This document shows positions 9,345 through 38,573 of a DNA stretch of 46,907 bases, piece by piece. Position 1 is the first letter of the stretch; every line of letters starts with the position of its first letter. Origin of the DNA: a virus; IMG/VR virus record IMGVR_UViG_3300046092_000171, positions 1 to 46,907 of that record; one strand, 5' to 3'. A program made the translations under genes and the position numbers. The notes under the pieces were generated by a model that was not told where the DNA came from, searched no databases, and was given only the letters and a program-made list of their open reading frames with translations.

Positions 9345-9393
9345 AATAATCTCAAATAAATACCTATATTTTTTCCATTGAATTTGTTTTAAT

Positions 9394-10326: not shown

Positions 10327-11000
10327 AGTAATTTTTCGAATGTGGTGAAGTTAACTCTATACTCGTTTCTGATATAGTCAAGGACAAGTCTGAAATTTTC
10401 GTATGTAGAATCTTTCCACGTATTCTTATTCCAATCTCCGCAGATGTGAGACTGAAAGACTACGAGGTTTTCCTTCTGTATGTTTATCTCAGAATTTTCG
10501 TGTATTCCATCACACCCATAAAACGTTTTCGTTGGAAAACTTATGTTAAAGTTTATGTCTCGATGTGCAGCTACAAAGTCGAAAGCTTCGCCGACAGCCT
10601 CGGCGCTACCCTGCGAACATCCCCACCCAGGCATACGAAACCCCCGTGGCCGTAACCCCACTTTATCCCATTCGTTGAGAATAAGTTCCACTCTGTCTTT
10701 TGCGCCGGTGTAATCCAATTCTAAGAATTCCTGTTCGCCCAACATCTTATTTTTACAATCGTGGTAGTGACCATGTGCACAAAGCTCAAAATGACCTTTG
10801 TGATTCAACCACTGCATCCATTCCTTATTCAAACTTATCGCAGTGGCGGAATGATAATAAGAAGGAATAAATAAACTAAACTTAGCGCCGAATTCTTCAT
10901 TGAGAGCGGTCAGATAAGTTTCGGTTTTGTCACCCCGTATCATCCATTCTTTTTGTGGATGAACGTCGTCGATACATATTACAACATTTAGATCATTCAT
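10323..11000 (-). CDS. NodB-like polysaccharide deacetylase-family protein
   Basis: A 225-residue protein resembling the DUF2334/NodB-like polysaccharide deacetylase superfamily. The Asp pair in CIDDVHP (residues 9-15) and the HxxxH zinc motif in CAHGHYHDC (His76, His80) are in place. RGFRMPGWG is the usual arginine motif, and a late VFQSHI could supply the last histidine. The enzyme class removes N- or O-acetyl groups from glycans. It is coupled by ATGA to the gene upstream and by GTGA to the one downstream. Confidence 0.8.
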   Translation of the reverse strand: MNDLNVVICIDDVHPQKEWMIRGDKTETYLTALNEEFGAKFSLFIPSYYHSATAISLNKEWMQWLNHKGHFELCAHGHYHDCKNKMLGEQEFLELDYTGAKDRVELILNEWDKVGLRPRGFRMPGWGCSQGSAEAVGEAFDFVAAHRDINFNISFPTKTFYGCDGIHENSEINIQKENLVVFQSHICGDWNKNTWKDSTYENFRLVLDYIRNEYRVNFTTFEKLL

Positions 11001-11992
11001 GTTTTATTTTTGAAATCTTCAAAGGTTAAAAACTTTCCCTGGTTCCTTATTAATATACCAATGTTATACTGGGACATTTTTATGAACCTGTTCCACCACT
11101 CACCCTTCTTTTCGTTACAAAATCCATTTGGGTTGTCTTCATTTGAGACGTATGTTCTCTTGTTGGGGTGTCGCCTAGCGTGAACTTTCAATATATTCTT
11201 AAAAATGAATTGACAGTAACTATCTCCCATCATCTGCTTGGCAACCAACGATAGACTCTCGTCGTCATTGTGGATAAAACACGGTGGTATGTTTATACCA
11301 GAACGTAAGAAGTCGCTGCTCATAACCAAACACGACCCGTCAATCTTTGGATAATTGATGTGGGCCAGTTCAAGCGGACCGCTGACATCATTTACAGCAT
11401 TCATGTCAGCGACCGACATTTTTGATTTTGCTTGATTCACATTCTCAAAATCAGATTCCACAAATACATGATTAAGATATTTGGGATGGACGGTAGCATC
11501 CCAACTAGAATCCCACATTTTGCGGTCGGCGAAGCATGCAACGTAACGATTCACTCCGTTCTCGCGAGCATAATTGGAAAGAACATCAAGTGCTTGAAAT
11601 GCTTGTTTTGGAAAAAAACTATCAGTTTCACCCCACATAACAAAGTCCACAATCTTGCAAAACTTTGAATTGTATTCCCTACGATAATCAGTTTGAGTGT
11701 AGAAACTGGAGTCGTCGTCAATTATTCTGGAATATAAAGTAGTAGGATCGACATATGGAATAAGTCGGCACAATTGTGACTCGAACTTCTCTATCAAACC
11801 ACGCTTATCTATCTTAGAAGCATCAATCTTCTCGAAGAACTGTGAAACATTGAATGCTATATCAATATGGACGTTCTCCTTGTTATCTACCGACTCCATC
11901 AAATTAATCATTCCGTCGATGAAATCCGAGAACATCTCGATTTCATAGAACATCACATGTGTTCCTATAGAGAATTTGTTAATTACTTTCAT
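10997..11992 (-). CDS. putative glycosyltransferase (GT-A-like)
   Basis: A 331-residue protein without a clear Pfam-type signature that I recognise. DFVMWGETDSFFPKQAFQ looks like a DxD-type strand-turn with an acidic pair (ETD) where GT-A enzymes bind metal and sugar nucleotide. CFIHNDDESL is a plausible catalytic acidic patch. Two genes in tight overlap flank it (ATGA on both sides), and both are sugar-related. The glycosyltransferase call rests largely on context. Confidence 0.45.
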   Translation of the reverse strand: MKVINKFSIGTHVMFYEIEMFSDFIDGMINLMESVDNKENVHIDIAFNVSQFFEKIDASKIDKRGLIEKFESQLCRLIPYVDPTTLYSRIIDDDSSFYTQTDYRREYNSKFCKIVDFVMWGETDSFFPKQAFQALDVLSNYARENGVNRYVACFADRKMWDSSWDATVHPKYLNHVFVESDFENVNQAKSKMSVADMNAVNDVSGPLELAHINYPKIDGSCLVMSSDFLRSGINIPPCFIHNDDESLSLVAKQMMGDSYCQFIFKNILKVHARRHPNKRTYVSNEDNPNGFCNEKKGEWWNRFIKMSQYNIGILIRNQGKFLTFEDFKNKT

Positions 11993-13005
11993 AGATTAGA
12001 AAGAACTTTTACAATTAAGTGTTCCGCCACAGCCTCATTGGAGGCGTCCATTTGAAACCTCTTGTGTTGTTCATACAACATTCCCTCGGCAAAGTTATAG
12101 TAATCCGGCAAATAAGTCTCCACCATCTCAACCAAATCCGAATAATCAGGTTTACAAGTCAATGACATTCCATCACCGTAAATCCAAGGTTTCGTCATTA
12201 CATTTGAAATTGACGGTTTAATTATTACCGTTCCCGTCATGAGAGCTTCTACCTCACGTATGTTAACCTCACCGTAGCCAAATGGAGAGATACAAAATTT
12301 GCTGTTGTGCAATACATCCAAATATTCGTTTCTGTTCAACTTACCGGTCTTCTCAGTTGTAACCACCCGACACTTTAAATCCTTAGCCGCACCAAACAGG
12401 TTTTTTCGAGATTCGTTATAAAGGTCATCTGTTCTGATCTCATGTTCATGATTCTCAGTTGATATTCCTATCATTATCGCAACGTCGTATTTCTTTTGTT
12501 TATTGACGCCGTTAAATGAAAATCCATTTCCGTATGTATTTAACCAATTAACTACACTTAAAATTAACGAGTCTTTCAGAGATTCTATATCATCTATTCC
12601 ATATCCACCGTTACCACATTCCGATTTTCCCCAAAACCATCGTCCGTTTTCATATTTGTTCTTGTAGTCCTCTGTAGAATTCAAGATAACATTTTTTACT
12701 AACTTCAAACCAGAATAGTTTTTACATACATCCCACGTTCCTATCAAACTAGAAGAGTCTTGTCCATCGAACACCACGAACGGTCGATTTATGTTTTTCA
12801 GAAACGCAAGTCCGTTTCGAGCAGATTCCTCCAATGACTTCTTCTTATCTATAATTGACGCTTGTCCGACAAACACAACATCCGCTTCGGATTCGTCATT
12901 AACGAACTGAATGCCGTGCCGCGACAACTCATCGGCTGCCGCTAGATAGGGTCTAAACGTAGTCTCGTTTCTGTGTTTGTTTAGTTCAGCTATATATATC
13001 TTCAT
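11989..13005 (-). CDS. GT-B glycosyltransferase (exostosin/GT1-like C-lobe)
   Basis: A 338-residue protein from the ATG at 13005, chosen because it overlaps the methyltransferase stop in an ATGA junction; the longer frame begins with TTG. The C-lobe pattern FCISPFGYGEVNIREVEALMTGTVIIKP closely fits exostosin-like and GT-B enzymes, with the Glu-x-x-Glu diphosphate-sugar motif in REVEAL. The N-lobe includes DVVFVGQASI and FVVFDGQDSS. It probably transfers a sugar to a growing glycan. Confidence 0.72.
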   Translation of the reverse strand: MKIYIAELNKHRNETTFRPYLAAADELSRHGIQFVNDESEADVVFVGQASIIDKKKSLEESARNGLAFLKNINRPFVVFDGQDSSSLIGTWDVCKNYSGLKLVKNVILNSTEDYKNKYENGRWFWGKSECGNGGYGIDDIESLKDSLILSVVNWLNTYGNGFSFNGVNKQKKYDVAIMIGISTENHEHEIRTDDLYNESRKNLFGAAKDLKCRVVTTEKTGKLNRNEYLDVLHNSKFCISPFGYGEVNIREVEALMTGTVIIKPSISNVMTKPWIYGDGMSLTCKPDYSDLVEMVETYLPDYYNFAEGMLYEQHKRFQMDASNEAVAEHLIVKVLSNL

Positions 13006-13571
13006 ACTTCGGAACAAATGACTCCCTCATAATCGTTGAGGAATCCTACAAATCCCGTTTCAAATGGACTATATCCTATTTTAGTCTCCATTTTCAATAT
13101 GTTATTTCCGATAAGAACATCAACAGCCGATTTTACCTCTGGGTATAATCCTATATCATCAAACACAAAATATTTCTTACCGGAAGAAGTCAATTTTAAT
13201 GAGTTCGATACATCCATGATAACCGCATCGTATGTATGAACCGCGTCCACGAAAATAACGTCTGCTGATTTAACCGGCAGCCCGAGCTTGTAGACATCTT
13301 GTGCAAACAACTCGTAATTCGATCTCCCATGTGACTTCAAAAAATTATCAGGGGCAACAACGGTATCGTAATTTATTCCATAGACCAATTTAAATACACA
13401 CGTCAAGAAGATAGTGGTGTATCCACTCTTACAACCTATCTCAAGGCACGTCTTGTCTTCGAATTCCGGTTTCTTGAAGAAATTATACAGATCGGTTTTA
13501 AACCGATGTGAGGTAGTGGTTCGGTCTTTGGATTTATCCGGTACCAGAGCAAGCAATTCGTTTAGTTCCAT
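13002..13571 (-). CDS. class I SAM-dependent methyltransferase
   Basis: A 189-residue Rossmann-fold methyltransferase. CLEIGCKSGYTT (42-53) is motif I for S-adenosylmethionine, and a strand with acidic end at VIFVDAVHTYDAVIMD (about 105-120) resembles the Methyltransf_24/CmcI-like group. The metal-binding Asp-Ala-x-His (DAVH) pattern is present. It could O-methylate a sugar or a precursor of the island's product. The next gene begins inside its stop. Confidence 0.82.
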   Translation of the reverse strand: MELNELLALVPDKSKDRTTTSHRFKTDLYNFFKKPEFEDKTCLEIGCKSGYTTIFLTCVFKLVYGINYDTVVAPDNFLKSHGRSNYELFAQDVYKLGLPVKSADVIFVDAVHTYDAVIMDVSNSLKLTSSGKKYFVFDDIGLYPEVKSAVDVLIGNNILKMETKIGYSPFETGFVGFLNDYEGVICSEV

Positions 13572-13574
13572 ATT

Positions 13575-15380
13575 TTAAGATTTTAACAACATTTCTTTCA
13601 AATTTTTAGCACAATCGACACAGGAAGTTATTTTTCCAGAAAAGACCGAATATACCTTGTCATTGTGTTGTTTAATAAAGCTGGGACGTGCATCATCATG
13701 ATCCCTCTCAGGCAACACGGTTCTGACCGTGAACATCGATCCTACGTGTTCCATAGCATCCATATCTTTAAAAAATACAGAGGCTGACTTGACGAACCTA
13801 TCCACGTTAGTAACATCCTTCAATTTGTCCGCCGGAACGACTCCGATGTTCATATGGGGAACGTATTTTTTAGGTATTTCTGGGAACTTTCCGACATTGG
13901 TGGCGTGTATAGCATGAACTACATTACCCATCACATGATATCCCGTTGAACCAAACGGGTCGATGCACATAAATGGACCATCCATAATGACCACGCTCAT
14001 GTTCTTATATGAGTCGGGTAGTTTGACCACTGGTTTTTCACACAATTCAAATTGACAATCAAACCGTTCGCTGTCAGATAGGATATGATTTATATTTGCG
14101 TAAGAACAATTAACGACGTAATCGTATTCATCTACCATCGTCCGTTCAAATCGACGCCCCAATATAACCGATAGACTATGTTCTTCTATTTTCTTCCACA
14201 CGTCAGTTTTCAGTTTAGTCGGGTCAAACAATTTTTCATTCACCTTCAAAATAATGCCCAAATTTTCTGATTTTAGTCTGTCGTTGTCAGTGACTTCAAA
14301 TTCCAATCCTGTCTTTTCCAAAAAAGACACATAATCACCTACGGATGTCCTCGAACCATCCTTTGCGATACAATAATAACTACTGACGTCTGAATTCGAT
14401 TTACAGTCAAATGTCTTTTGAAACGAATCATTTCCACTCTTTGATGCGAAAGCGGTGTCCGCGCTCCGCGGGTAATGGTATCCCCGATGAATCCTATACT
14501 GATTTATTGAACTCGCTTTGGTTAAAATGTCCATCTCCGACTCAAAGATAGTCGGAAAGAAGTCGTCCTTTAGTTCCATCGCAGCACTTACACCGAAGAC
14601 ACCAGCGCCTACGATAGCTACTCTTGGTTTGTTATTTTTAAAATGACACTGTAGTATACGTTCGACTTCACGGTGACGTTCCGTGTTCTGTTTGAAATCC
14701 ACACCGCCGAGCAGAACCCGTTCCATCATATCACGTAGGGGATTGTTTTCGGGTGAAGAAAGTTGTATCTCAGAAGAGGTTGATGAAGCGAAATCCAAAG
14801 ACGTTATAGTTTTTCTGGCCGCTCCTTGTGAGAGTCTGTCGTATGACAAGTAAACCGGAACGTTGCCAAACACAAAACCATATTGCTTTTCGTTTATTCT
14901 ATTCTGAACGGTGGAAAAATTAGATATTCGCTGAGGACCTAGTATATCCAATAACAAATAAATGTCATGGTAAACGAGGTTATTTACTATGTTATCACCA
15001 AATGATCCAAATTTATGCCACGAAAAAACCAAAGAATTTGAATCACGAAATTCATCTTTTCGTCTTATATATTCGGAGTTGAAAAGAAAAACATCGTCGA
15101 TGTACAACTTCACACCGAGCCTATAGGCGAGTTCCATCAGAATCAGCGATTCGCTGAAATTTGAAGTCAGTGGCTTTTCGCAGAAAACGTTTATTCCTTT
15201 TAAAAGGAAAGTTTTGACCAACTCTCCATGTGAAGGGGTGCTGCTGGCGATTATCACCCAATCTACATCGTAACTAACCATCATGTCACGACCAGTAAAG
15301 AACACAATCTCATGACTGTCCTTTACTACCTCATAAATCTTCGTTCCGAAGTATCCTCTACCTATTATCCCTATTCTCAT
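13575..15380 (-). CDS. fused Gfo/Idh/MocA oxidoreductase and DAO-type FAD oxidoreductase
   Basis: A 601-residue two-domain protein. Residues 1 to about 245 are a Gfo/Idh/MocA-type NAD(P)-dependent sugar oxidoreductase: IGIIGRGYFG at the start, IIASSTPSH, and the catalytic CEKPLT motif with Lys69. At about 251 a second Rossmann fold begins (RVAIVGAGVFGVSAAMEL), continuing to the end as a D-amino-acid-oxidase-type flavoprotein with YRIHRGYHYPRS. The frame is continuous, with no stop or frameshift at the join. Both halves are redox enzymes, so it may perform two steps on the same sugar. The start overlaps the end of the glycosyltransferase gene upstream by 23 bases. Confidence 0.85.
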   Translation of the reverse strand: MRIGIIGRGYFGTKIYEVVKDSHEIVFFTGRDMMVSYDVDWVIIASSTPSHGELVKTFLLKGINVFCEKPLTSNFSESLILMELAYRLGVKLYIDDVFLFNSEYIRRKDEFRDSNSLVFSWHKFGSFGDNIVNNLVYHDIYLLLDILGPQRISNFSTVQNRINEKQYGFVFGNVPVYLSYDRLSQGAARKTITSLDFASSTSSEIQLSSPENNPLRDMMERVLLGGVDFKQNTERHREVERILQCHFKNNKPRVAIVGAGVFGVSAAMELKDDFFPTIFESEMDILTKASSINQYRIHRGYHYPRSADTAFASKSGNDSFQKTFDCKSNSDVSSYYCIAKDGSRTSVGDYVSFLEKTGLEFEVTDNDRLKSENLGIILKVNEKLFDPTKLKTDVWKKIEEHSLSVILGRRFERTMVDEYDYVVNCSYANINHILSDSERFDCQFELCEKPVVKLPDSYKNMSVVIMDGPFMCIDPFGSTGYHVMGNVVHAIHATNVGKFPEIPKKYVPHMNIGVVPADKLKDVTNVDRFVKSASVFFKDMDAMEHVGSMFTVRTVLPERDHDDARPSFIKQHNDKVYSVFSGKITSCVDCAKNLKEMLLKS

Positions 15381-16113
15381 ACAGATTCTTATATGTCATC
15401 TCCATCCAATAAGGCACACTCTTATCTTTATCCGGCAACCCATTGAAATGCATTACATTCGCTACTTTTGTATGTAACATGTCGGAGTCTAACACCTCTT
15501 TCTTGTTAAGACAAACACAATTGTATTTATATGACAGTTCCTTTATTTCAATCTTCTCCCGTCGCAATAAAAAGTTCAGTGGAGTCTGATCAGTTCCCAC
15601 TCCAAAGGTTTTCTGACACCATTTTATTTCCTCTCTATTTGATATGTAGAAGTTACGCATCGTATCAAAAAAATTACGGTGGGTTCCATTCACAACTTGA
15701 AATCCACTATTATAATACGTCCACCAATCAAACATCGGTTCATCCTTAAAGATGAACTTTCTGTAGTTTTCCATTGACCGTAAAATCCAATCGTAATCAC
15801 CGTCATCCCGAACGAGGGTGTATTTATTATCAGTTAATGAAAATATGTCCGGACAATTCGGGTGAACTACGGTGTCAGCGTCAACTATCAATATCTGATT
15901 GTATTTTATCTGATTGTGATCCAACAAATCAAACAGAAAGTATCTCTGCCAGATGATTCCCATTTCCGACTGTTCTACGATTGGAGTATCCAAGACAAAC
16001 AATTCATGTCCATTTGACTGACAGAAGTGTTTCCAACTCTTTATAGAAAAGTCATATTCTGGCTTCGATTGGCCATCCTTCTTCACGTTTATGATGAATA
16101 CTATGTTATTCAT
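15358..16113 (-). CDS. GT-A glycosyltransferase (DxD), paralogue A
   Basis: A 251-residue protein with ILIVDADTVVHPN near residue 77, the DxD metal and nucleotide-sugar site of GT-A enzymes. YNSGFQVVN follows, and MHFNGLPDK lies near the end, the usual His-containing closing motif of GT8-like enzymes. It is related to the next gene upstream: both share the strand before the DxD, the NSG motif, the gap before a QT(P/L)LN-type segment and a final HF-G-P motif. Tandem duplication is likely. Confidence 0.75.
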   Translation of the reverse strand: MNNIVFIINVKKDGQSKPEYDFSIKSWKHFCQSNGHELFVLDTPIVEQSEMGIIWQRYFLFDLLDHNQIKYNQILIVDADTVVHPNCPDIFSLTDNKYTLVRDDGDYDWILRSMENYRKFIFKDEPMFDWWTYYNSGFQVVNGTHRNFFDTMRNFYISNREEIKWCQKTFGVGTDQTPLNFLLRREKIEIKELSYKYNCVCLNKKEVLDSDMLHTKVANVMHFNGLPDKDKSVPYWMEMTYKNLYENRDNR

Positions 16114-16852
16114 ATAGATGCTTTACCGACTCCCATACATTCTTCATGACATCAGTCCGACTTTCAATTGGAAACCCAGTGAAATGCCAGACGTAGGCGT
16201 ATTTTACAAAGAAAGGGGTCTTATCCTCATTTAATTGCCAGTTATGAACGAACATGTTTTTCTTATGAATGGAAAATAGGTTCCATCTATCATCAAAATA
16301 CTTCTGCTTGACGTGGTTCTTTTTAAGAGAAAGATTTAAGAGAGTTTGTACCTTACCGACCCCTTTTATAGTATCCAACTCGGATTGATTCTTCACATAC
16401 AATTCAATCAATTCATCATAAATATATTTATGATCTCTAGTAAAGAAAACCACGCCGCTGTTTATATATTCATCCAATGGAAGTGTTACGTTTGGATAGA
16501 AATGACCATAAGTTGAAATTGAATTATATATCCATCTCAATGAACTTATCTCCTTAACTCCACAAAATTCATCAGTATACAAATCGAAGGGATTTGGACA
16601 ATCCCACCTAACAATTGTATCGGAGTCGACATATCCTATCTTTTCGTATGTATTTCCAACGAGTTCGAAAATCCTATCCTTGTTCCATACGGGAAACTTA
16701 TATCTAGGGTCATTGTCTCGTATAACAAGAAAGTCGATTCCATTTTTCTTACACCACTTCTCCCAACTCAATATACAATACTGGCTATACAAAGAATTTT
16801 TGAACTTCGATGTATCAGAATCTACCGCTGTTGTGTATATCAAAGTTTTCAC
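16106..16852 (-). CDS. GT-A glycosyltransferase (DxD), paralogue B
   Basis: A 248-residue protein starting with GTG in a GTGA overlap. IGYVDSDTIVRWDCPNPF carries the DxD site, INSGVVFFTRD matches the NSG motif of its neighbour, VQTLLNLSL matches the QT-LN segment, and the end has VWHFTGFP. The paralogy with the downstream gene is visible by eye although sequence identity is limited. It probably uses a different donor or acceptor from its paralogue. Confidence 0.75.
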   Translation of the reverse strand: MKTLIYTTAVDSDTSKFKNSLYSQYCILSWEKWCKKNGIDFLVIRDNDPRYKFPVWNKDRIFELVGNTYEKIGYVDSDTIVRWDCPNPFDLYTDEFCGVKEISSLRWIYNSISTYGHFYPNVTLPLDEYINSGVVFFTRDHKYIYDELIELYVKNQSELDTIKGVGKVQTLLNLSLKKNHVKQKYFDDRWNLFSIHKKNMFVHNWQLNEDKTPFFVKYAYVWHFTGFPIESRTDVMKNVWESVKHLYE

Positions 16853-17319
16853 TTGGAATCGTTCATGTGGTCGCTTATCGTGTTAAGTATAATCCGTTTA
16901 AGTTGGTCGTCTACTTTATATTTCTTACAATTTATCTCAACGGATTTGAGCAAATCACCGTCTTTATACTGTGCTGATGCGGTCTTCCAATCAGCAAGCA
17001 TCTCAAGTATATCCAACAAAGTCATTTCGTTCACACCGTCTCCCCAGTGCTCGGGGTGATGACGATTGTTTGTGTGGTGAATGTCGATTATGACCTTCAT
17101 CTCATTCATCTTCTCACTATGTTCAGTGCTTCCATAGACGATGTTAGATGCGTTATCGACATTTTCTGCAAACCCCGATAGTTCCGGGTCGGAAAACTTC
17201 GATGCATCATGTGATCTCCCGCGTTCTATCAGTTCGGAAGCGAATGAATTCAAATTTTTCTGCACGGCCATCACATGATTCCGAATGTAACGGAGGTATT
17301 TAACTCGTCTCTCGTTCAT
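16849..17319 (-). CDS. DUF5662-family protein (HD-like)
   Basis: A 156-residue protein matching the DUF5662 pattern seen in phages and bacteria. It has KYLRYIRNHVMAVQKNL, RGRSHDASKFSDPE, a histidine cluster around IDIHHTNNRHHPEHWGDGV, then LLDILEMLADWKTAS. The conserved His and Asp residues suggest an HD-like metal-dependent phosphohydrolase fold, but no activity is established. It sits between glycosyltransferase genes with ATGA/GTGA overlaps on both sides, so it is co-translated with them. Confidence 0.78.
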   Translation of the reverse strand: MNERRVKYLRYIRNHVMAVQKNLNSFASELIERGRSHDASKFSDPELSGFAENVDNASNIVYGSTEHSEKMNEMKVIIDIHHTNNRHHPEHWGDGVNEMTLLDILEMLADWKTASAQYKDGDLLKSVEINCKKYKVDDQLKRIILNTISDHMNDSK

Positions 17320-18002
17320 GGTATCTTATGTCCCCTATTCATGGCTTCACTGAAATCTGTGTTGTATCTGACGTTGGTCTGTATTTGTTTTTCTATCGTT
17401 TTGGCATGAATTAACGCAAATTCTTCTTCCTTTGGGAATTTGGAAGACACTTTGTATCCTTCGATTTTCTCATGTAACGGACGTTCCCATCGAAGATGTG
17501 GGAGATTTTTGAAAATTCTTCCCTGGTAATCGCCACCATGCCAATTCACCCACTTGTTAGGGTTATTTATATCCCATCCCCACTGCAATGCATGTTCTTC
17601 CGTTACTCCGTGGAATATATTTATACGGGGAACCCAAAACAATTCTACGTTCTCATTGGAAGATAATATCTCATGTAGGTTAGTCATGAGAGTCTCAGCC
17701 GGCATCTCATCCGCGTCTATTTGAAATATCCAATCACCGGAACATTTTGATTTTCCATAATTCTTGTGTTCGGAGTAGTTTTTGTTTAACTCATGTTTAT
17801 GGATGTTTATGTTTCCTTTTTCGAACCAATCCCAATCGGTCAAATATTTACACGTCTGCACTTCGGTGGAATAGTCGTCTATGATAACTATCTCGTCACG
17901 GGCTGGCAACGAAAATTCTGCAAGATACTCAACTAATTCGGAAAGTTGCTTTCCTTCATTTTTACAAGTAACGAGATAGCTTATTTTTGGAACAGTTGAC
18001 AT
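17316..18002 (-). CDS. glycosyltransferase family 2 (WaaE/KdtX-like)
   Basis: A 228-residue GT2 enzyme. The start ISYLVTCKNEGKQL and the nucleotide-contacting IIDDYSTE (about 40-47) are followed by EHKNYGKSKCSGDWIFQIDADEM with the DxD site at 96-98. RPLHEKIEGYK near the end is typical of LPS-core GT2 proteins of the WaaE/KdtX kind. It should add a hexose or heptose to a glycan. It overlaps the next gene by one base in a TAATG junction. Confidence 0.85.
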   Translation of the reverse strand: MSTVPKISYLVTCKNEGKQLSELVEYLAEFSLPARDEIVIIDDYSTEVQTCKYLTDWDWFEKGNINIHKHELNKNYSEHKNYGKSKCSGDWIFQIDADEMPAETLMTNLHEILSSNENVELFWVPRINIFHGVTEEHALQWGWDINNPNKWVNWHGGDYQGRIFKNLPHLRWERPLHEKIEGYKVSSKFPKEEEFALIHAKTIEKQIQTNVRYNTDFSEAMNRGHKIP

Positions 18003-19327
18003 TATACCTTCTTTAGTGTTGGAAGTTCTACCTTCTTCAGTTTCGGTAATTCTATTCTTTTTAATGAAGGCAAAACTATCTTCTGCTCGGTCGGAAACTC
18101 TGGAACATACTTATCAAGCATACCATGAAATTGATTGTCTATCGTCGACGTGTTAAACTTCTCAGCCAATCCTACACATCCGAGAATAGACTTCTCAGTT
18201 AGAGAATCATAGTTAGTCACCATTCCACGCAATTTCTCTTTTGCTTTTTCATAATTGACGTTAAACCACGAAGATTCCTTTATAATCCACTGATTGGCAG
18301 AGTCTCCCCTCACTTGTTTCAATTCTCCTTTAATTGGATATGAGTTCTCCGTATTAAGGAAATCCAAATGGCCACTCCAATCCGACGCCATAACTGGCTT
18401 ACCACTCAAACCTGCCAACAATAGCGGATGTCCATATCCTTCACCGTGAGTGAAGCTAATGTGAGTTTTTACCTTCTCGTGATTGAACAGAGCATTCATT
18501 TCCACATCGTTCAACTCACCATGTAGTAGGTATACATTAGGCAAATCTCCGCCAACAGATTCTCTGATCTTATTAATCCTATTCAAGCACTCCGCCTTAT
18601 CGACGCTTGAAAAAGAAACTCCGCTTGTCTTCAGTATCAACGCTGGTTTTTCCTTGACACCGACAAAGGCCTCACAGAACGTCTTAATCAACATTCCAAT
18701 ATCCTTACGGTCGCTATACAAGCCATTGCTGTGAGTCCACTGGCCTACAAATAGGAAACAGAAGTTTTCTTTCACACCCGATAGTGCCGCGTCGAGAGTC
18801 TCGTTCTTTTCGGATGTTCTCTTGTATACCGAAGTATCAGCGCCCCAACGGACAACCTCTATGGGCTTCCTCAACTTCAATTCTTCTTTCTTTCCATCCG
18901 GGTGTTGTTTTACGAATGATGCCTGTGAAAAAACTTTCTTAACAAAATCAGACAGAACAAAGTTTACGGACATTCGATTCATTCCTTCAATCCAATCACC
19001 CGGAGGAACCGTAGTTTCTATCCCCGCGGTCATCCCTATGTTAAACTTCGCCGGTGTCTGAAATTCACTTGGAATGGTCATTTGAATGAATACATCCGGT
19101 TGTTTTGATAGTGGTTGACGAAGAATTCGGTTAAATAGTTCCCGTTCAAGTGGGTCGGTTATATCGTTAGACGTAGACTTCGACGGACATCCGCCCCATC
19201 TAGTAGGGACTATTGATAAGTCAAATTTACCATATCGGAGCAAAGACTTTGCCATTGCCATGGACCACTCTCCGTAGCCTGACCGAGTGAATAATGGGGA
19301 TTGAAGTATACAAACTGGTTTATTCAT
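18002..19327 (-). CDS. GT4-type glycosyltransferase with C-terminal octapeptide repeats
   Basis: A 441-residue GT-B enzyme. The N-lobe includes RSGYGEWSMAMAKSLLRYG, and NFCFLFVGQWTHSNGL starts the C-lobe. HGEGYGHPLLLAGLSGKP then ASDWSGHLDFL forms the donor-binding region with its conserved Glu. The last 25 residues are three imperfect 8-residue repeats of the form (V/I)-(x)-LP-x-LK-(R/K), an unusual tail that may be a binding or oligomerisation segment. It follows the dUTPase stop in a TAATATG junction. Confidence 0.82.
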   Translation of the reverse strand: MNKPVCILQSPLFTRSGYGEWSMAMAKSLLRYGKFDLSIVPTRWGGCPSKSTSNDITDPLERELFNRILRQPLSKQPDVFIQMTIPSEFQTPAKFNIGMTAGIETTVPPGDWIEGMNRMSVNFVLSDFVKKVFSQASFVKQHPDGKKEELKLRKPIEVVRWGADTSVYKRTSEKNETLDAALSGVKENFCFLFVGQWTHSNGLYSDRKDIGMLIKTFCEAFVGVKEKPALILKTSGVSFSSVDKAECLNRINKIRESVGGDLPNVYLLHGELNDVEMNALFNHEKVKTHISFTHGEGYGHPLLLAGLSGKPVMASDWSGHLDFLNTENSYPIKGELKQVRGDSANQWIIKESSWFNVNYEKAKEKLRGMVTNYDSLTEKSILGCVGLAEKFNTSTIDNQFHGMLDKYVPEFPTEQKIVLPSLKRIELPKLKKVELPTLKKV

Positions 19328-19328
19328 A

Positions 19329-20018
19329 TTATTTGGAATCTCTTTCTTTAAGAAGGTCTATGTATTTCTTGGGCGTCGGTGAAATGTTGTCTTTTTGATA
19401 TAGGTCGGTTATGACCGACGGTAAGGTTACACGGACATCGGTACTTCCAAATCCACCATCGTTCCGTTCGGTGACATCCAACTGATCTACCAACTTGAAC
19501 TTAACTGGTTCGTTAACCGTGATTTTCAATTGTCCTATGGCATCTCCTTTTTTGTAAATCTTGTCTAAATTAGGTTTCCCCACAATTCTCGAACTTATAG
19601 CAGTGACGTTGCCATCCGCTGTCGGAACGTAAATGAAATCCATTGGCTGCCAGTTGTATTTGAATCGGAGAAGAATTTCCCCCCTATAATCAGCATCTAT
19701 CAATCCCACTGAGTTTGCCAAGGTTAAATTGTATTTCGACACAGATGACCTTGGGTATACCAATACGTCGTATGATACAGCTGAAGAAGTAAACATATCG
19801 CCGAATTTCCGTTCATCTTGAGTTGCTATGAAAATTCCAGTCCGATACTGAATGTAGTCTATAGAATCCCAAAGAGTGTCAGACTTTGCGGTTTTGGTTC
19901 CTACAATTTCCGGATCGGAGATTGCTTTTATGTCAAAACCAGTTGAACGCTTCGTAGCATGCTTAGGCAACTTAGAATCATCGTCAAAATATTCGTTCTT
20001 TACAATTTGTATTTCCAT
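19329..20018 (-). CDS. dut: dUTPase (dUTP diphosphatase)
   Basis: A 229-residue trimeric-type dUTPase. All five motifs can be read: STGFDI (25-30), YPRSSVSKY (about 88-96), GLIDADYRGEI (105-115), KGDAIGQL (157-164, in place of the usual G-x-R-x-AQ) and the P-loop-like RNDGGFGSTD (185-194). It hydrolyses dUTP to dUMP, keeping uracil out of DNA and feeding dTMP synthesis. It is longer than the usual 150 residues because of inserts between motifs 1 and 2 and after motif 3. It probably has its own promoter in the 60-base gap upstream. Confidence 0.92.
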   Translation of the reverse strand: MEIQIVKNEYFDDDSKLPKHATKRSTGFDIKAISDPEIVGTKTAKSDTLWDSIDYIQYRTGIFIATQDERKFGDMFTSSAVSYDVLVYPRSSVSKYNLTLANSVGLIDADYRGEILLRFKYNWQPMDFIYVPTADGNVTAISSRIVGKPNLDKIYKKGDAIGQLKITVNEPVKFKLVDQLDVTERNDGGFGSTDVRVTLPSVITDLYQKDNISPTPKKYIDLLKERDSK

Positions 20019-20056
20019 ATAGGTATATTCTCACATCACATCCAACTAATCAATCT

Positions 20057-20080
20057 ATTATACGAACGTATATAGCGTTC
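20057..20080 (-). promoter_or_regulatory. candidate dUTPase promoter with inverted repeat
   Basis: On the minus strand a perfect TATAAT lies at 20062-20057, about 40 bases before the dUTPase ATG. Just upstream is an inverted repeat GAACG-7-CGTTC (20064-20080) that overlaps the expected -35 to -10 spacer. No good -35 box sits at 17 bases. The repeat could be an operator. Seen by eye only. Confidence 0.4.
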
Positions 20081-21062
20081 AAGTTAATATCGATTTCATG
20101 CCAACCTCTTTCCTCATTTTTTCCACATCTATCTTCGGAATCTCAAACCCCATACTGTTTTCCGGCATCTTATTTCCAATATATTCCGATGAATCATGGA
20201 GGCTAAATCTCGACCGTGGAGTGAAGTTCTCCAATGTGAAATCCATAGCCTTTATAAACTGTTCGGCAAGATTCTTATGATTCAATCCACCTTCGTTTAA
20301 AGCCCACCGTCGGCCCTCCGCTCCACACGATTCACACTTTTCTTTGCCGAGAACATACCAATACATCATAGCCTCGGCCACATCCTCCCACTTACACAAA
20401 TCGTCGAATATATAAGGTGTCGGTGGAGAACCCTGAACGACCCGAGTCACGGGCCACACTGGTTTTGCCCACACTCCGTGCTTTGTATATTTCTTAACGT
20501 TGTTCGAACCAAAATCTCGTGAAAATTCAACTGGCTTTCCATTGTCATCCAACTGACCTATTTGATCTTGCAATCCACCAGTCACATTCACAATGACGGG
20601 AGTTCCCGATACAATCGACTCCGCGACGCTTAATCCAAATCCCTCATTTGAACTCACGTTGATTGTGACGTCGGACATATTGTATAGGAGATTCATTTCT
20701 TCGGGAGAATACCGACTCTCCAATACAAGATAATTGAGGCCTTGTAGAAAAGCTTCTCCGACCGCGTTCAAATCTGTTCCCGCGTCGAGGATTTTCTCGG
20801 TGTGAAGAACGAGAATGCACTTAGACGACTTCTCTTTCGGTAGATTGTCACAAAACGTCCGGAACGCCAACATGATGTTCGCTGTCCGCTTACGATTGAT
20901 GTTACGGCTGTTATAGAAGAATACGAAATCATATTCTCCGTTCTTAAACAAGTTCTTACGAAACTTTGTGAGTTCAGGCGACGTAGCGTCGACTGGTTTA
21001 AATACAGTGGAGTTGATCCCATGTGGGACGTAGTGAAGTAGGTGTTTTCCTTTTACTGGCAT
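20079..21062 (-). CDS. C-terminal half of a split GT4-type glycosyltransferase
   Basis: A 327-residue protein that begins directly at the hinge and C-lobe of a GT-B enzyme. HLLHYVPHGINSTVFKPV is the usual join to the donor-binding lobe. It is followed by DFVFFYNSRNINRKR and SDVTINVSSNEGFGLSVAES, with the conserved Glu-x7-Glu, and GTPVIVNVTGG. It lacks any N-lobe. The gene two places upstream (21451-21999) supplies a matching N-lobe that ends just at the hinge, so the two together would make one enzyme of about 510 residues. Function as a two-chain enzyme is likely but inferred. Confidence 0.8.
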   Translation of the reverse strand: MPVKGKHLLHYVPHGINSTVFKPVDATSPELTKFRKNLFKNGEYDFVFFYNSRNINRKRTANIMLAFRTFCDNLPKEKSSKCILVLHTEKILDAGTDLNAVGEAFLQGLNYLVLESRYSPEEMNLLYNMSDVTINVSSNEGFGLSVAESIVSGTPVIVNVTGGLQDQIGQLDDNGKPVEFSRDFGSNNVKKYTKHGVWAKPVWPVTRVVQGSPPTPYIFDDLCKWEDVAEAMMYWYVLGKEKCESCGAEGRRWALNEGGLNHKNLAEQFIKAMDFTLENFTPRSRFSLHDSSEYIGNKMPENSMGFEIPKIDVEKMRKEVGMKSILT

Positions 21063-34608: not shown

Positions 34609-35379
34609 TCAGAAAAAGGTTTCGATTGCATTATTTTCCACCACAATTTCCTCTATTTCATCAACATGGTGAGACGACTTTGGATATGGAAGAACGGGAT
34701 GTTTCAGTGATTTTAAGAGTTTTTTCTTCTCAACTCGGTTCCCTATAAAAATTACATATCTGTGCTTCGTTGATTCTTTCTTTCTATAAAAGGTCTTTCC
34801 TATACATCTTTTCAGATGGCCTATGTTACAACTTCCCCACTTAGACGTAACCGATCGACTGTGCATCCACTCGTAATTCGGGGGTCCGACGAGACTTAGA
34901 CTAAAGTTAGGCATGAGAGCAAGTGAGGAATTCCCTTGATAATGAAAACCGGTTGCTTGATATATCACACCGTTATGTCCCTGTTCACCATCCGCGTAAC
35001 TCAAAATTGATTTTATCCACGGGAAATCTCGATTCAGAAGTTTGAATGATTGTGATATGGAATAACTCTCTATATTTCGACCATATCCATCAAAAATGAA
35101 CAATCTAGTGAGTTCAAAAACTTCATCTATTTTCAACAAATTTGACAACGAAGCAGCGGCGCTTCTACCCACCGGTTGACCGTAAATAAGACATCCAATT
35201 AGCTTATCTTCCGTCTCATCAAAAAAGTTACTTTGAGAATCGGTTCTGTAAAAAACCCCATATGCCACCTGACACAATGTCCACTTGTGGCTATAGTGAT
35301 TCTTTACTATTATATCCTTGGCGACGCTTTTGTTAATGGGTCTTAGATAGACCCGTGATGTATTACAGGGAACTTCCAC
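34609..35379 (-). CDS. Mom-like DNA-modification protein
   Basis: A 256-residue protein that appears to start with GTG. It fits the Mu Mom family, whose GNAT-like fold modifies adenine in DNA. Its segments run RPINKSVAKDIIVKNHYSHKW, LIGCLIYGQPVGRSAA, VFELTRLFIFDGYGRNIES, IKSILSYADGEQGHNGVIYQATGF, then a Trp/Tyr-containing tail. Mu Mom converts adenine to N6-(1-acetamido)-type adenine and so blocks host restriction. Whether this homologue has the same chemistry is unknown. No ribosome binding site is obvious before the GTG. Confidence 0.7.
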   Translation of the reverse strand: MEVPCNTSRVYLRPINKSVAKDIIVKNHYSHKWTLCQVAYGVFYRTDSQSNFFDETEDKLIGCLIYGQPVGRSAAASLSNLLKIDEVFELTRLFIFDGYGRNIESYSISQSFKLLNRDFPWIKSILSYADGEQGHNGVIYQATGFHYQGNSSLALMPNFSLSLVGPPNYEWMHSRSVTSKWGSCNIGHLKRCIGKTFYRKKESTKHRYVIFIGNRVEKKKLLKSLKHPVLPYPKSSHHVDEIEEIVVENNAIETFF

Positions 35380-35410: not shown

Positions 35411-36001
35411 TCAATTTTTTTTATCAACAATTGACAGATATCCTATATAACCACTATTGTTTGAATTTATAGCAGATGCAGCTACGGTTGTAATTTTTCC
35501 GGAAGGAGAAACTATCCTATACTCGTCTTCGTAGGCACGTCCCTCCTTAACAGATGATTCCCAGTTTGATATAACTCTCTGTCTATCATCCTCATGGATA
35601 ATGTTCTTCCAATTATGACCAAGCAATCCATCTCTCTCGCGCTGAACCAATTCGATGAACGGTAGATTGACCCAAACGTATTCACCGGCGCTTGTTGCCT
35701 CAAATATCGGTTCACTTCGACGATCCATTATCCACCGCTGACGATAAAAAATCTTGTTCGTGAGCTTGGTGTTTTCCGTTATTTCACAAGACATGAGATT
35801 GATTTTATCTTTTATCGATCCCCCGCCGTTGGGAGTTATTTCCTTGAATATGGACTCTACTTGCGAATGAACCTTTGTTATGGAAGAGAACTGTTCCGTT
35901 ATCTTCTTACGAAGAAACATTACGACTTTAATGAGAATGCCCACAATAGTTAAAATTGCAATTATTATTTCCAGGCTTAGTTTGGCAGTGACAATCTCCA
36001 T
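35411..36001 (-). CDS. membrane-anchored PAS-domain protein
   Basis: A 196-residue protein. Residues about 8-30 form one transmembrane helix (LEIIIAILTIVGILIKVVMF), followed by a short coiled-coil-like stretch. From about 95 there is a PAS fold of the PAS_3 type: PIFEATSAGEYVWVNLPFIELV, LLGHNWKNIIHEDDRQRVISNW, EDEYRIVSPSGKITTV and GYIGYLSIVDKK. No kinase, cyclase or other output domain is attached. It could sense a ligand or bind a host signalling protein at the membrane. Three exact 20-base repeats precede its start. Confidence 0.8.
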   Translation of the reverse strand: MEIVTAKLSLEIIIAILTIVGILIKVVMFLRKKITEQFSSITKVHSQVESIFKEITPNGGGSIKDKINLMSCEITENTKLTNKIFYRQRWIMDRRSEPIFEATSAGEYVWVNLPFIELVQRERDGLLGHNWKNIIHEDDRQRVISNWESSVKEGRAYEDEYRIVSPSGKITTVAASAINSNNSGYIGYLSIVDKKN

Positions 36002-36016: not shown

Positions 36017-36076
36017 ATCTCTTTTTATAAAAGACAATCTCTTTTTATAAAAGACAATCTCTTTTTATAAAAGACA
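36017..36076. repeat. three exact 20-base tandem repeats
   Basis: The unit ATCTCTTTTTATAAAAGACA occurs three times without a mismatch between the ribonucleotide reductase C-gene and the PAS gene. Each copy holds the self-complementary core TTTTATAAAA. On the minus strand the array ends 16 bases before the PAS start codon and each unit also carries AAAGAGA. It is probably a promoter/operator array or a slippage-prone leader. Confidence 0.9.
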
Positions 36077-36090: not shown

Positions 36091-36741
36091 TTACCGTATA
36101 GGACAAGCACCACCCTCACATTCTATTCCCTGTATCATGGCGGTTTCGTCATTGGTCATTACTATCTTCTTTATTTTAGATCTAGCCTCATTATATTCTT
36201 CCTCCGTGATTTCTATATAAGGAGCTTGTTTAAATCCATGTTCCTTATGAAGAAGGAAACTTACGCTCTTAATGTTCTTTTCATAATTCAACTTCAACCA
36301 ATCCTGCAACGTTCCAAGTTCCTCCTCCTTGTAATAAGCAGTGACACTCACTGAATTGTCGCTCCACGAACTCTGAAGAAGTTTTACCATCTCAAGTTGT
36401 TTAATCACATCCATGTCTTTTGCCAACACAGCGCCGTCCGGAGTAATACATGGAAAATATATTACGACGGTGTCATGTTGTTCGCTTCCATCAAGCTTGA
36501 GAAGGAACTCACATCGATAGCCGGCGTCCCTACAAGCTTTTACTAGTTTATCAGAACTAGAGACGCGTATCGTCCTCATGTAATACTTACTGTAAGCGGG
36601 ATGTATTCCCGGAGTTGATCCGCCCAATATGGAAAGTGTGTTATGACTGATCAACCCGTTTTCCAATTGATAACAATGTGTGTCTTCGACTTCACAATCT
36701 ACTGTGAAGTTTTGTTTAATTTCTTTCTTTATTAATCTCAT
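36091..36741 (-). CDS. nrdJ: C-intein plus C-terminal part of class II ribonucleotide reductase
   Basis: A 216-residue protein. Residues 1-34 are a C-terminal intein fragment: CEVEDTHCYQL (block F-like), then ENGLISHN, ending in the His-Asn pair. The next residue is Thr, which starts the C-extein TLSILGGSTPGIHPAYSKYY, the conserved RNR stretch after the KPSG motif. The last residues IECEGGACPIR carry the redox Cys pair that reloads the active site. After trans-splicing with the 36786-38573 product this gives a complete reductase. The gene is 44 bases downstream of its partner in a different frame. Confidence 0.9.
   Translation of the reverse strand: MRLIKKEIKQNFTVDCEVEDTHCYQLENGLISHNTLSILGGSTPGIHPAYSKYYMRTIRVSSSDKLVKACRDAGYRCEFLLKLDGSEQHDTVVIYFPCITPDGAVLAKDMDVIKQLEMVKLLQSSWSDNSVSVTAYYKEEELGTLQDWLKLNYEKNIKSVSFLLHKEHGFKQAPYIEITEEEYNEARSKIKKIVMTNDETAMIQGIECEGGACPIR
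36640..36741 (-). other. C-terminal split-intein fragment (34 aa)
   Basis: The first 34 codons of the C-gene encode the short C-intein. It ends Ser-His-Asn directly before the Thr of the C-extein, as required for asparagine cyclisation and Thr+1-dependent splicing. Length is typical of split C-inteins (about 35 residues). Confidence 0.85.
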
Positions 36742-36785
36742 GTAATATTCTTTCTTTTTCTAAATCTCTCTGTTCATTCCACTTC

Positions 36786-38573
36786 CTAAACAATCTCCAC
36801 ATTGCATCCTCGACTTTTTACAAAAGACTCATCCAATACATCAAATTCGGTTATATCTTTCGCAGATTTCCATTCCCCGGATTTCAACAAAAATTTATGA
36901 TTTGGAGTGCACTCCACCACAAACCCATCATCAAATGTCAATTTAATTGTTTCTCCGAATCCATTCACAAACAATTTATTAACATCTTTATAATCTCCAT
37001 TTTTATCCAACACCTTAATCGGATTTATACATTCATACCACTCTCTCATTTCATTTATTTTCTCACTTAAATTTATTTCGTTTAATTTAAAAATATCCTC
37101 AAATGACAAAATTCCTTTGTCCGTCTTTATTTTTGTGGTTGGAATGACACAACCGCTTGGTTTGATTGTAGTAAGTTTTATGCTTTCCGGATAATTCTTT
37201 TCCTTACTCCATTCACGATCAAACTTACGTAGCTTAACATAACATGCATCCAGCCATTTTATCTTATCCAATGACTGACACACTCCCGTCACGCCAAGTC
37301 CAAGTCGCATGTTCTTGTGAACGATTTTAGTGGTTTCATCGTGGATGAACGGTAGTGAGGCAATAGCTTTCTGTGACTTATATAGCAGTCTAGCAGCATC
37401 ATATAGTTCATTTTCATCTGTGATGTTATTCAGATGTAACTCACACAGATTACAACACTCATAGTTAGCCAATGAAATTTCCCCGCATGGATTCGTGCCC
37501 ACCACATTGTCAAAATCTGTGGGGTAAATATTAGAATTCTTCATTGGACCGTCAATGAGCCTTCCATATTTTTGGGAAAGCGGCAGGTTGAAAAACCCAT
37601 AAGGTTCTCCATTTGCATGTCCCGTTTTCTTGTTTATAACATATCCATTCTCCCACACTTCCTGCATGATATGTTCATAATCATCAACGTAAATAGTGTT
37701 ATTTGACATTGATCTCCAATTTGGGATGTCGCCGGTGTTCCAATTCTTAGCTCTAAGATAAAGTATGTCGTCCGGATCTCCCAATGCAATCTCAGCGGAA
37801 CGACGGACGTTTCCAGCGACTACTACGCTTCCTATGATGTTGCACACATCCAGCACGTCTACGCTTCTCAATTTCTTCCCCTCACGAGATTGAAATATCT
37901 TAGATATTTTTGTTATGCCCTCGACTAAAATGGCAGGACCACTAGCCTTTCCACCGAATCCATTGATTTTTTCGCCAGCTCCCCTAACCAGAATAGTAGA
38001 ATAGGTAAATGATTTGCCGTTAACATAAAAAGAATTCAAAGTATACTCAAGGAGTTTAACCCAACCCTCTCTTGTATCGGGAACAATGAAATCAGCGTCC
38101 TTTGTGTTGATGTGTGCCACTGATACTGATTTCAACACTTTCGGCAATTCATGGACATCTTCCCTACGTATGCTGTATCCAACGCCACCGCCCAACATGA
38201 GGTTCTCAAATAGAAATGTGAACGCTTTCGGTTCATTCATACTCACGTACCAACAATTGAGCAGACTGTTAGCTCCGAATCTATCAACCGTGGACGTTCC
38301 TAATTGCCAAAGCATGCGGCCGGCAAAGTTACACTTTAAATTGAATACCAAGTCATAAAGACGTTCAGCTTCATCTTTTGTATACGATGCTCCTATCTTT
38401 TGTGCTCCGTTTATACATCTAGCAACTGTTTCAAACCACTCTTCCGATTCTCCATTTTCTTTGGTTCTTGAATACGTTCGTTTATAGACGACGTATCCTA
38501 ATTCACCGAATCCCCAATTTGGTTGTTTGTTTTTATACTTTTCCAAAAATGTTTGCGTAATAATATCTGTCAT
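36786..38573 (-). CDS. nrdJ: N-terminal part of class II ribonucleotide reductase plus N-intein
   Basis: A 595-residue protein. Residues 1-474 are the N-extein, an adenosylcobalamin-dependent (class II, RTPR-like monomeric) ribonucleotide reductase: GRMLWQLGT, then SLLNCWYVSM with the active-site Cys107. A glycine-rich GGGVGYSIRR, TNPCGEISLANYECCNLCEL and IKPSG follow. At residue 475 a Cys begins a 121-residue N-intein ending at the stop codon. The enzyme would reduce ribonucleotides to deoxynucleotides once spliced; spliced length is about 656 residues. No clear Shine-Dalgarno site precedes the ATG. Confidence 0.92.
   Translation of the reverse strand: MTDIITQTFLEKYKNKQPNWGFGELGYVVYKRTYSRTKENGESEEWFETVARCINGAQKIGASYTKDEAERLYDLVFNLKCNFAGRMLWQLGTSTVDRFGANSLLNCWYVSMNEPKAFTFLFENLMLGGGVGYSIRREDVHELPKVLKSVSVAHINTKDADFIVPDTREGWVKLLEYTLNSFYVNGKSFTYSTILVRGAGEKINGFGGKASGPAILVEGITKISKIFQSREGKKLRSVDVLDVCNIIGSVVVAGNVRRSAEIALGDPDDILYLRAKNWNTGDIPNWRSMSNNTIYVDDYEHIMQEVWENGYVINKKTGHANGEPYGFFNLPLSQKYGRLIDGPMKNSNIYPTDFDNVVGTNPCGEISLANYECCNLCELHLNNITDENELYDAARLLYKSQKAIASLPFIHDETTKIVHKNMRLGLGVTGVCQSLDKIKWLDACYVKLRKFDREWSKEKNYPESIKLTTIKPSGCVIPTTKIKTDKGILSFEDIFKLNEINLSEKINEMREWYECINPIKVLDKNGDYKDVNKLFVNGFGETIKLTFDDGFVVECTPNHKFLLKSGEWKSAKDITEFDVLDESFVKSRGCNVEIV
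36789..37151 (-). other. N-terminal split-intein fragment (121 aa)
   Basis: The last 121 residues of the N-gene start CVIPTTKIKTDKGILSFEDI (splicing block A with Cys1) and contain VECTPNHKFLLKSGEWKSAKDI (block B with the T-x-x-H motif). The frame then ends; no endonuclease domain is present on either side. The insertion point is between KPSG and TLS, a conserved active-site region. Confidence 0.9.

What the first reader, a model, noticed from the sequence alone, without database searches (positions are those of the whole stretch)
36091..38573. Naturally split intein in a phage class II ribonucleotide reductase
The reductase is encoded by two adjacent genes. The first ends with a 121-residue N-intein beginning with Cys after KPSG. 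The second opens with a 34-residue C-intein ending His-Asn before Thr. The extein pieces fit exactly at the conserved KPSG/TLS junction. No endonuclease remains, and the two genes are in different frames separated by 44 bases, so this is not a sequencing frameshift. Split NrdJ inteins have been described from marine metagenomes; this sequence does not look like the NrdJ-1 intein as I remember it, so it may be a separate allele.
Basis: partly seen in the sequence, partly recalled or inferred. Interest (0 to 1): 0.85.

Follow-up and report, generated by a model that had tools for sequence, protein, structure and literature searches.

The report
Phage split intein without its endonuclease
In this phage the enzyme that makes DNA building blocks is encoded as two separate genes whose protein products almost certainly weld themselves together through a split self-splicing element; the element is a new member of a known kind, but its relatives suggest that the break can outlive the DNA-cutting gene that probably made it.

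Summary
A monomeric-type class II ribonucleotide reductase (RNR) is encoded by two genes (38573-36786 and 36741-36091, minus strand). The first ends in a 121-aa N-intein, the second opens with a 34-aa C-intein, and the exteins join exactly at KPSG/TLS to give 656 aa. Curated intein models, a predicted HINT fold, codon-level constraint and a syntenic phage with an empty KPSG-TLS site support a naturally split intein. No single frameshift could join the genes.

NrdJ-1 sits at NPC/SEI, and a relative of it occupies that other site in contig L032, whose RNR is in three pieces carrying both inteins.

Two near relatives carry the same split intein with a free-standing Vsr-like endonuclease gene between the halves, the published 'fractured gene' arrangement. 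The window pairs with one of them in an intein tree, so its endonuclease was probably lost. Of 57 related clusters, 50 are split: 20 with Vsr-like and 12 with other intervening ORFs (HNH or GIY-YIG in the ten scanned), 18 with no room for one (two uncertain).

Verdict: real, functional-looking, a new member of a known kind. Splicing is untested.

The parts
36786..38573 (-). RNR N-terminal gene, 595 aa (N-extein + N-intein), stop TAG included
37152..38573 (-). N-extein, 474 aa of an AdoCbl-dependent ribonucleoside-triphosphate reductase, ending KPSG
   Evidence: TIGR02505 267 bits; 1L1L phmmer 3.1e-67, with NCW, NPCGE and CNL motifs aligned
36789..37151 (-). N-intein (IntN), 121 aa: Cys1 at 37149-37151, block-B-like T82-P-N-H85 at 36897-36908, disordered last 9 residues
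   Evidence: TIGR01445 31.5 bits, cut-off 24.5; AlphaFold2 pLDDT 84.9 with residues 113-121 under 50; Foldseek best match Npu DnaE split intein 4qfq E 2e-4
36742..36785 (-). 44-nt intergenic gap
36719..36817 (-). candidate endonuclease scar: a 33-codon open frame, different from both gene frames, ending in ...WNEQRDLEKERILHEINKERN, in register with the tail of the relatives' Vsr-like endonuclease; it overlaps the first codons of IntC
   Evidence: 31 and 28 of 5000 shuffles reach the score; top of 998 ORF segments, E 0.23; lost when the IntC overlap is removed. Suggestive only.
36091..36741 (-). RNR C-terminal gene, 216 aa (C-intein + C-extein), stop included
36640..36741 (-). C-intein (IntC), 34 aa, ending His33-Asn34 (36640-36645)
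   Evidence: TIGR01443 15.6 bits, at the cut-off of 15.6; 85-88% identical to L003, L037 and L032
36094..36639 (-). C-extein, 182 aa, Thr +1 (36637-36639) to the C-terminal CEGGACPIR (Cys-x4-Cys)
   Evidence: 1L1L residues 551-739, E 1.5e-14

Best explanation
It is a naturally split intein in a phage class II (monomeric, RTPR-type) ribonucleotide reductase. The two gene products bind through the complementary intein halves, which fold together into a HINT domain. The N-intein Cys1 takes over the KPSG peptide bond, Thr+1 of the C-extein attacks to give the branched ester, Asn34 cyclises, and a native KPSG-TLS bond joins the 474- and 182-residue parts into a working 656-residue enzyme. The break arose in the 'fractured gene' manner: a homing endonuclease gene occupied the split point, as it still does in relatives, and was later deleted, leaving a split, no longer self-mobile element that must splice for the enzyme to work. 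Shown here: anatomy, homology, predicted fold, codon-level constraint, empty-site counterpart, endonuclease-bearing relatives. Inferred: splicing, its chemistry, the loss of the endonuclease, and the need for ligation.
For: Exact junction and lengths; uninterrupted KPSGTLS in 26 of 27 relatives, among them syntenic L002, whose N-extein is 98% identical. Intein models: TIGR01445 above and TIGR01443 at curated cut-off. A 45-member N-intein alignment keeps C1, G13, L60, N63, G64 and H85 invariant and T82 near-invariant. HINT fold: the window IntN model matches Npu DnaE IntN first; a contiguous relative, L085, models at pLDDT 94.5 and matches Npu DnaE at E 9.2e-8. pN/pS is 0.24-0.40 in IntN and 0.05-0.18 in IntC over six pairs of four alleles, in or below the range of the C-extein (0.21-0.42), and the window's IntC is more conserved than the C-extein beside it. 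Same intein plus endonuclease ORF in L003 and L037; nuclease profile matches Vsr, E 0.001. The intein tree pairs the window with endonuclease-bearing L031 (the contig of L037) at 100/89. RNR motifs line up with 1L1L in both halves.
Against: No splicing data exist. The window IntN alone finds no solved intein below E 0.1, Pfam Intein_splicing scores below its cut-off (22.5 of 35.8), the IntC model is only just reached, and only three chains match the IntN model at Foldseek E 0.001 or better. The endonuclease-scar match is weak: it disappears when codons shared with IntC are removed, and the corresponding test in L032 is negative (3124 and 3660 of 5000). On the tree, two losses or one loss and a regain explain the window's group equally well. 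Part of the conservation at the start of IntC may reflect overlap with the endonuclease tail in L003 and L037. dS is saturated in most pairs, so pN/pS is only a rough guide.
Confidence: 0.92

Rival explanations
1. The two RNR pieces work as a non-covalent complex and the intein halves are inert tails, as in split reductases that function in pieces without splicing.
For: Precedents: Pseudomonas aeruginosa NrdJa/NrdJb (PMC4520616, passages) and a reductase split by a homing endonuclease gene that keeps its function as two peptides (stated in PMC10448857, passages). No splicing was tested here.
Against: Both intein halves are conserved in sequence with pN/pS well below 1, keep Cys1, TxxH and His-Asn, and the N half folds as HINT. 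In P. aeruginosa the break lies elsewhere: it separates a 734-residue catalytic part from a 229-residue thiol-exchange part. Here the break falls inside the conserved KPSG/TLS motif.
Confidence: 0.05
2. The gene is a decaying pseudogene or an assembly or sequencing artefact of a contiguous mini-intein.
For: Contiguous members of the family exist (7 of 57 clusters, one of them, L197, in another protein), and the window is a single metagenomic contig whose reads could not be checked.
Against: No single indel can fuse the frames. Both ORFs are intact, with C-terminal RNR residues kept. Seventeen other clusters are split without room for an endonuclease (L109 and L138 uncertain), and some of these clusters hold loci from more than one contig, although only the best locus of each was classified.
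Confidence: 0.02
3. The interruption is an RNA intron, removed before translation.
For: Phage RNR genes often carry group I introns (PMC3653736, passages).
Against: No Rfam family reaches its gathering score anywhere in the window. The insert is coding, under codon-level constraint, and has intein motifs at both ends.
Confidence: 0.01

Closest known systems
'Fractured genes': split inteins with a free-standing, often Vsr-like homing endonuclease between the halves (Dassa et al. 2009, PMID 19264795; paper not held, content recalled; seen here only as cited)
   Same: Conserved phage enzyme broken by a split intein. Near relatives L003 and L037 carry exactly this arrangement, with an endonuclease of 333 and 336-341 aa.
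   Different: In the window the endonuclease gene is gone and only a 44-nt gap remains. Whether the KPSG/TLS allele is among the nine intein-bearing RNRs that PMC3653736 attributes to that study (7 nrdA, 2 nrdJ) could not be checked.
NrdJ-1 split intein
   Same: Split intein in an RNR from environmental sequence; same HINT fold.
   Different: Different insertion site (NPC/SEI, PMC13123727, passages, against KPSG/TLS) and distant sequence (A3 profile against 8ubs only E 6.8e-4). An NrdJ-1-like intein co-occurs at NP|C in the same protein in L032. NrdJ-1 uses Ser+1, the window Thr+1.
Npu DnaE split intein
   Same: Closest solved fold to the window IntN (4qfq, E 2e-4); similar N/C division.
   Different: Cellular (cyanobacterial), with the halves encoded far apart (recalled); no detectable close sequence relation.
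Campylobacter phage NrdA mini-intein (NC_015464, L068)
   Same: 41% identical over 100 residues, at the equivalent APTA|TSG position.
   Different: One continuous 153-aa intein, no split.
Unannotated huge phage LR756500.1 (462 kb, L067)
   Same: RNR-like gene (by eye) split at APTG|TVS by a related split intein with a related endonuclease between the halves.
   Different: More distant RNR; endonuclease still present.

Membership tests
Naturally split intein | Two separate ORFs whose extein parts abut exactly in an intact homologue | tested here: met
   empty site in L002
Naturally split intein | N-terminal Cys/Ser, block B TxxH, C-terminal (His)Asn, +1 Cys/Ser/Thr | tested here: met
   C1, T82..H85, H33-N34, T+1; conserved in the family; motif names recalled
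Naturally split intein | Curated intein family models | tested here: met
   TIGR01445 31.5 against 24.5; TIGR01443 15.6 against 15.6; Pfam PF14890 below cut-off (22.5 against 35.8)
Naturally split intein | HINT fold | tested here: met
   for IntN; for a contiguous relative. The joined IntN-IntC of the window was not folded.
Naturally split intein | Protein trans-splicing | not testable with these tools
   needs expression and mass spectrometry
Fractured gene (split intein plus intervening free-standing endonuclease) | Endonuclease gene between the halves | tested here: not met
   44-nt gap in the window; met in relatives L003 and L037
NrdJ-1 allele | Insertion at NPC/SEI and close sequence relation | tested here: not met
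Class II RNR, monomeric RTPR type | Overall homology and catalytic residues | tested here: met
   TIGR02505 267.3 bits (N) and 91.1 bits (C), each alone below the full-length cut-off of 340; 1L1L 3.1e-67 and 1.5e-14 with NCW, NPCGE, CNL and CEGGACPI aligned; residue roles recalled; monomeric state not tested
Vsr-like / EDxHD homing endonuclease (in relatives, not in the window) | Vsr-like nuclease domain | tested here: met
   A5 profile against Vsr 1odg and 1vsr E 0.0011, 1cw0 0.0015; PHROG matches of L037, among them 3339 'homing endonuclease'; Pfam only sub-threshold for L003. Family name EDxHD from PMC3943268 (passages); not tested against I-Bth0305I; cleavage not tested.

The most novel reading that the evidence does not exclude
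At the KPSG/TLS loop of phage reductases the split is a stable platform that outlives its nucleases: Vsr-like, HNH and GIY-YIG endonuclease genes have come and gone at one fixed break, many phages keep the break with no endonuclease at all, and some contiguous inteins of the family are re-fusions of a split ancestor. Phage reductases would then be a natural system in which gene breaking by a selfish element is fixed long-term, up to three-piece enzymes held together by two different split inteins (L032).
Probability: 0.4. Interest if true: 0.65.

Novelty: new member of a known kind. Interest (0 to 1): 0.52.

Why it matters
It adds a distinct site and sequence family to the split inteins used for joining proteins, with a Thr+1 junction and dozens of natural variants to test. 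The paired states at one site (empty, endonuclease-bearing, endonuclease-less, contiguous) make the origin and persistence of broken genes testable. It is also a practical warning: surveys that accept only full-length reductases may pass over such genes (for instance, PMC12918982 reports eight intein-containing sequences among 18,717 validated viral RNRs; passages; that split genes are missed there is my inference).

Tried and rejected
A frameshift or assembly error joining one gene: rejected as a single event, both frames are closed for 29 nt. RNA intron: no Rfam match in the window. Identity with NrdJ-1: rejected by site and sequence. Presence in bacterial or archaeal genomes: two scans of genome contigs, with A2 and with A6, gave no confirmed relative (89 and 123 candidate stretches). 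A clear endonuclease scar: only partly upheld (negative in L032). Defence-system reading of the endonuclease: no PADLOC match for L003's. A first N-intein scan with a two-member alignment found only one contig; the six-member alignment found 116, of which 80 were kept. The key papers Dassa 2009 and Carvajal-Vallejos 2012 are not held. One search for naturally split inteins in phage metagenomes returned no paper.

The class of the other RNRs in the family was not tested; they are called RNR from their junction motifs. Two of the 12 'other' intervening ORFs (L125, L145) were not scanned.

Full report
WHAT IS THERE. The window is a 46,907-base virus record. On its minus strand lie two adjacent genes. 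The first (38573-36786) encodes 595 aa: 474 aa of reductase ending KPSG, then 121 aa beginning with Cys. The second (36741-36091) encodes 216 aa: 34 aa ending His-Asn, then 182 aa of reductase beginning TLS. The gap is 44 nt and the exteins sum to 656 aa. The N frame stops at 36786-36788 and the C frame opens only at 36759; neither frame is open in the 29 nt between, so no single indel can fuse them. The lengths, junction and spacing given in the finding are confirmed.

THE REDUCTASE. Both parts match the AdoCbl-dependent ribonucleoside-triphosphate reductase model TIGR02505 (267 and 91 bits, each below the full-length cut-off of 340). They also match Lactobacillus RTPR 1L1L at E 3.1e-67 for the N part and 1.5e-14 for the C part, with the C part covering 1L1L residues 551-739 to the last residue. 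The motifs NCW, NPCGE, CNL and the terminal CEGGACPI line up; that these carry the catalytic cysteines is recalled. The best match among phage records is the reductase of Maribacter phage Panino, 48% over 78% of the N gene.

THE INTEIN. The N-intein passes the curated model TIGR01445 (31.5 bits, cut-off 24.5) and the C-intein just reaches TIGR01443 (15.6, cut-off 15.6). Pfam Intein_splicing matches below its cut-off, and the single sequence finds no solved intein better than E 0.1. A six-member profile does: DnaB intein 4.3e-5, gp41-1 1.7e-4, NrdJ-1 6.8e-4. The predicted N-intein (45-member alignment, pLDDT 84.9, last nine residues disordered) matches the Npu DnaE split N-intein best, E 2.0e-4, TM 0.63/0.74; three chains reach E 0.001, all Npu DnaE. 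A contiguous relative, L085 (140 aa, 51-55% identical to the window IntN), was modelled at pLDDT 94.5 and matches Npu DnaE at E 9.2e-8.

SELECTION. For the window, L003, L037 and L032, pN/pS over all six pairs is 0.24-0.40 for the N-intein, 0.05-0.18 for the C-intein and 0.21-0.42 for the C-extein. The window's C-intein is 85-88% identical to the other three while the adjoining C-extein is 54-65%. Synonymous sites are saturated in most pairs. This is what is expected if the intein must keep working.

EMPTY SITES. Of the 28 loci found with the N gene, L003 carries the intein. Of the other 27, 26 read KPSGTLS without interruption and L025 ends before the site. L002 is syntenic with the window (six blocks at 80-95% nucleotide identity within the 13.4 kb held), has a 98% identical N-extein and the empty site. 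In the N-extein tree the four split carriers need four changes (at least three forced by well-supported branches), and the window is sister to empty L002 (support 99); L037 there has a long branch and its place is unsure. The intein is therefore sporadic.

ENDONUCLEASE-BEARING RELATIVES. L003 has the same split intein (IntN 65%, IntC 85% identical) with a 333-aa ORF between the halves, overlapping the C gene by 29 nt. L037 has the same with a 341-aa ORF. A profile of these and two other such proteins finds Vsr endonuclease at E 0.001. This is the arrangement published as 'fractured genes' (Dassa et al. 2009; paper not held, recalled; cited in papers seen as passages). In the intein tree (55 rows) the window is sister to L031, another locus of the L037 contig, with support 100/89, inside a well-supported group of four: two with and two without the endonuclease. 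Two losses, or one loss and a regain, fit that group equally well. I favour loss in the window because the L003 and L037 endonucleases are about as similar (59%) as their N-inteins (64%), as expected if both came down together; that is inference.

THE SCAR. A third frame across the gap reads ...WNEQRDLEKERILHEINKERN-stop, in register with the tail of the L003 endonuclease, WNKNQLIEKEKINYEINKKRN. Using only the part before the IntC start, 31 and 28 of 5000 shuffles reach the scores against L003 and L037; the same test fails for L032 (3124 and 3660 of 5000). Against the endonuclease profile this frame ranks first of 998 ORF segments in the window, but with E 0.23, and it drops out when the IntC overlap is removed. 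I treat it as suggestive.

THE FAMILY. Scans with N- and C-intein alignments (80 of 116 N-intein relatives kept, 56 C-intein loci) brought the set to 201 loci used plus the window, grouped by shared 100-mers into 108 clusters. Both halves were found on one strand within 6 kb in 57 clusters. The other 51 include loci fetched as empty-site reductases or endonuclease relatives, and contigs with only one half in reach. In 55 of the 57 the upstream side is the reductase loop (K/A)P-x-G or a close variant; L197 is another protein and L109 could not be read there. By the best locus of each cluster: 20 split with a Vsr-like endonuclease match, 12 split with another ORF, 18 split with under 300 nt between (the window among them; L109 and L138 uncertain), 7 contiguous. 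Ten of the 12 other ORFs were scanned: six match HNH (L119 below cut-off) and four match GIY-YIG models (L076 and L126 below cut-off). L088 and L112 retain endonuclease matches of about 28 and 67 profile positions. The four states need 18 changes on the tree, against a shuffled mean of 28.6. The set was seeded with split inteins and capped, so the proportions are not a census.

NOT NrdJ-1. In L032, on a 303-kb contig, the reductase is in three genes. The first break, at NP|C, carries an intein that matches NrdJ-1 (8ubs) at E 3.9e-15; the second, at KPSG|TLS, carries the window's type. The NrdJ-1 native junction is NPC/SEI (PMC13123727, passages). The two are distinct elements at distinct sites.

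HOW IT MOST LIKELY WORKS. The two products associate through the intein halves, splice by the standard Cys1 / Thr+1 / Asn34 pathway and yield the intact enzyme. The N-intein tail is acidic (net -4 over residues 91-110) and the C-intein start basic (net +3 over residues 1-12), as in other split inteins (recalled). Because the break falls in a conserved loop, unspliced halves are probably inactive (inference). The main rival is a non-covalent two-piece enzyme, for which P. aeruginosa NrdJab is a precedent (PMC4520616, passages).

NOVELTY. Splits of phage reductases by inteins, introns and endonucleases are on record, among them 7 nrdA and 2 nrdJ genes with inteins in marine metagenomes, credited to Dassa et al. 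(PMC3653736, passages). Fragmented nrdD genes with intein-domain proteins between the pieces are reported in gut Jug phages (PMC12363816, preprint, passages). My full-text searches showed me no paper on a split intein at KPSG/TLS with this range of states. The library lacks the two most relevant papers, some of the earlier nine may be at this site, and I saw listings and passages rather than whole papers, so this is not proof of absence. I file the window as a new member of a known kind.

Noticed in passing
L032 4045-7654 (IMGVR_UViG_3300037042_006844, 303 kb): RNR in three genes carrying two different split inteins (NrdJ-1-like at NP|C, window-like at KPSG|TLS), with an endonuclease-like ORF (5449-6216) only at the first break.
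   Followed up: partly
window 36017-36076: Three 20-bp direct repeats, each nearly palindromic (TCTTTTTATAAAAGA), between the RNR C gene and the next gene; no other copies in the window with up to 3 mismatches. Possibly a promoter or terminator array.
   Followed up: no
L034 3518-7639: An RNR in three genes; by eye the first gene runs from its N-intein straight into a GIY-YIG-like stretch, so an endonuclease may be fused to an N-intein half.
   Followed up: no
L024 5956-8904 and L027 5992-8919: Relatives with a contiguous intein of LAGLIDADG type (by eye) at another site, directly before the Cys of the LLN-CWF motif, with KPSG-TLS empty.
   Followed up: no
L035 4880-8092: A helicase-like gene (by eye) with one contiguous intein and a second, split one, the latter brought in by its C-intein similarity.
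   Followed up: no
window 34609-35379 and L037 9017-9823: Mom-family protein (Pfam Mom, E 2.7e-42 in the window) near the RNR, suggesting DNA base modification; a similar-looking protein sits near the L037 RNR.
   Followed up: no
window 35411-36001: Small protein with a PAS domain (PAS_3 E 2.4e-12) and a hydrophobic N-terminus (by eye) just downstream of the RNR; a similar-looking ORF follows the RNR in L003 (9522-10112).
   Followed up: no
window about 6400-21062: Sugar-related block: aminotransferase, two nucleotide-sugar epimerase-like proteins and two glycosyltransferases by PHROG match.
   Followed up: no
L003 8780-8808 and L037 7986-8011: The endonuclease gene overlaps the start of the C-intein gene by 29 and 26 nt, so the endonuclease tail codons double as the first C-intein codons and cannot be deleted with the rest.
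   Followed up: partly
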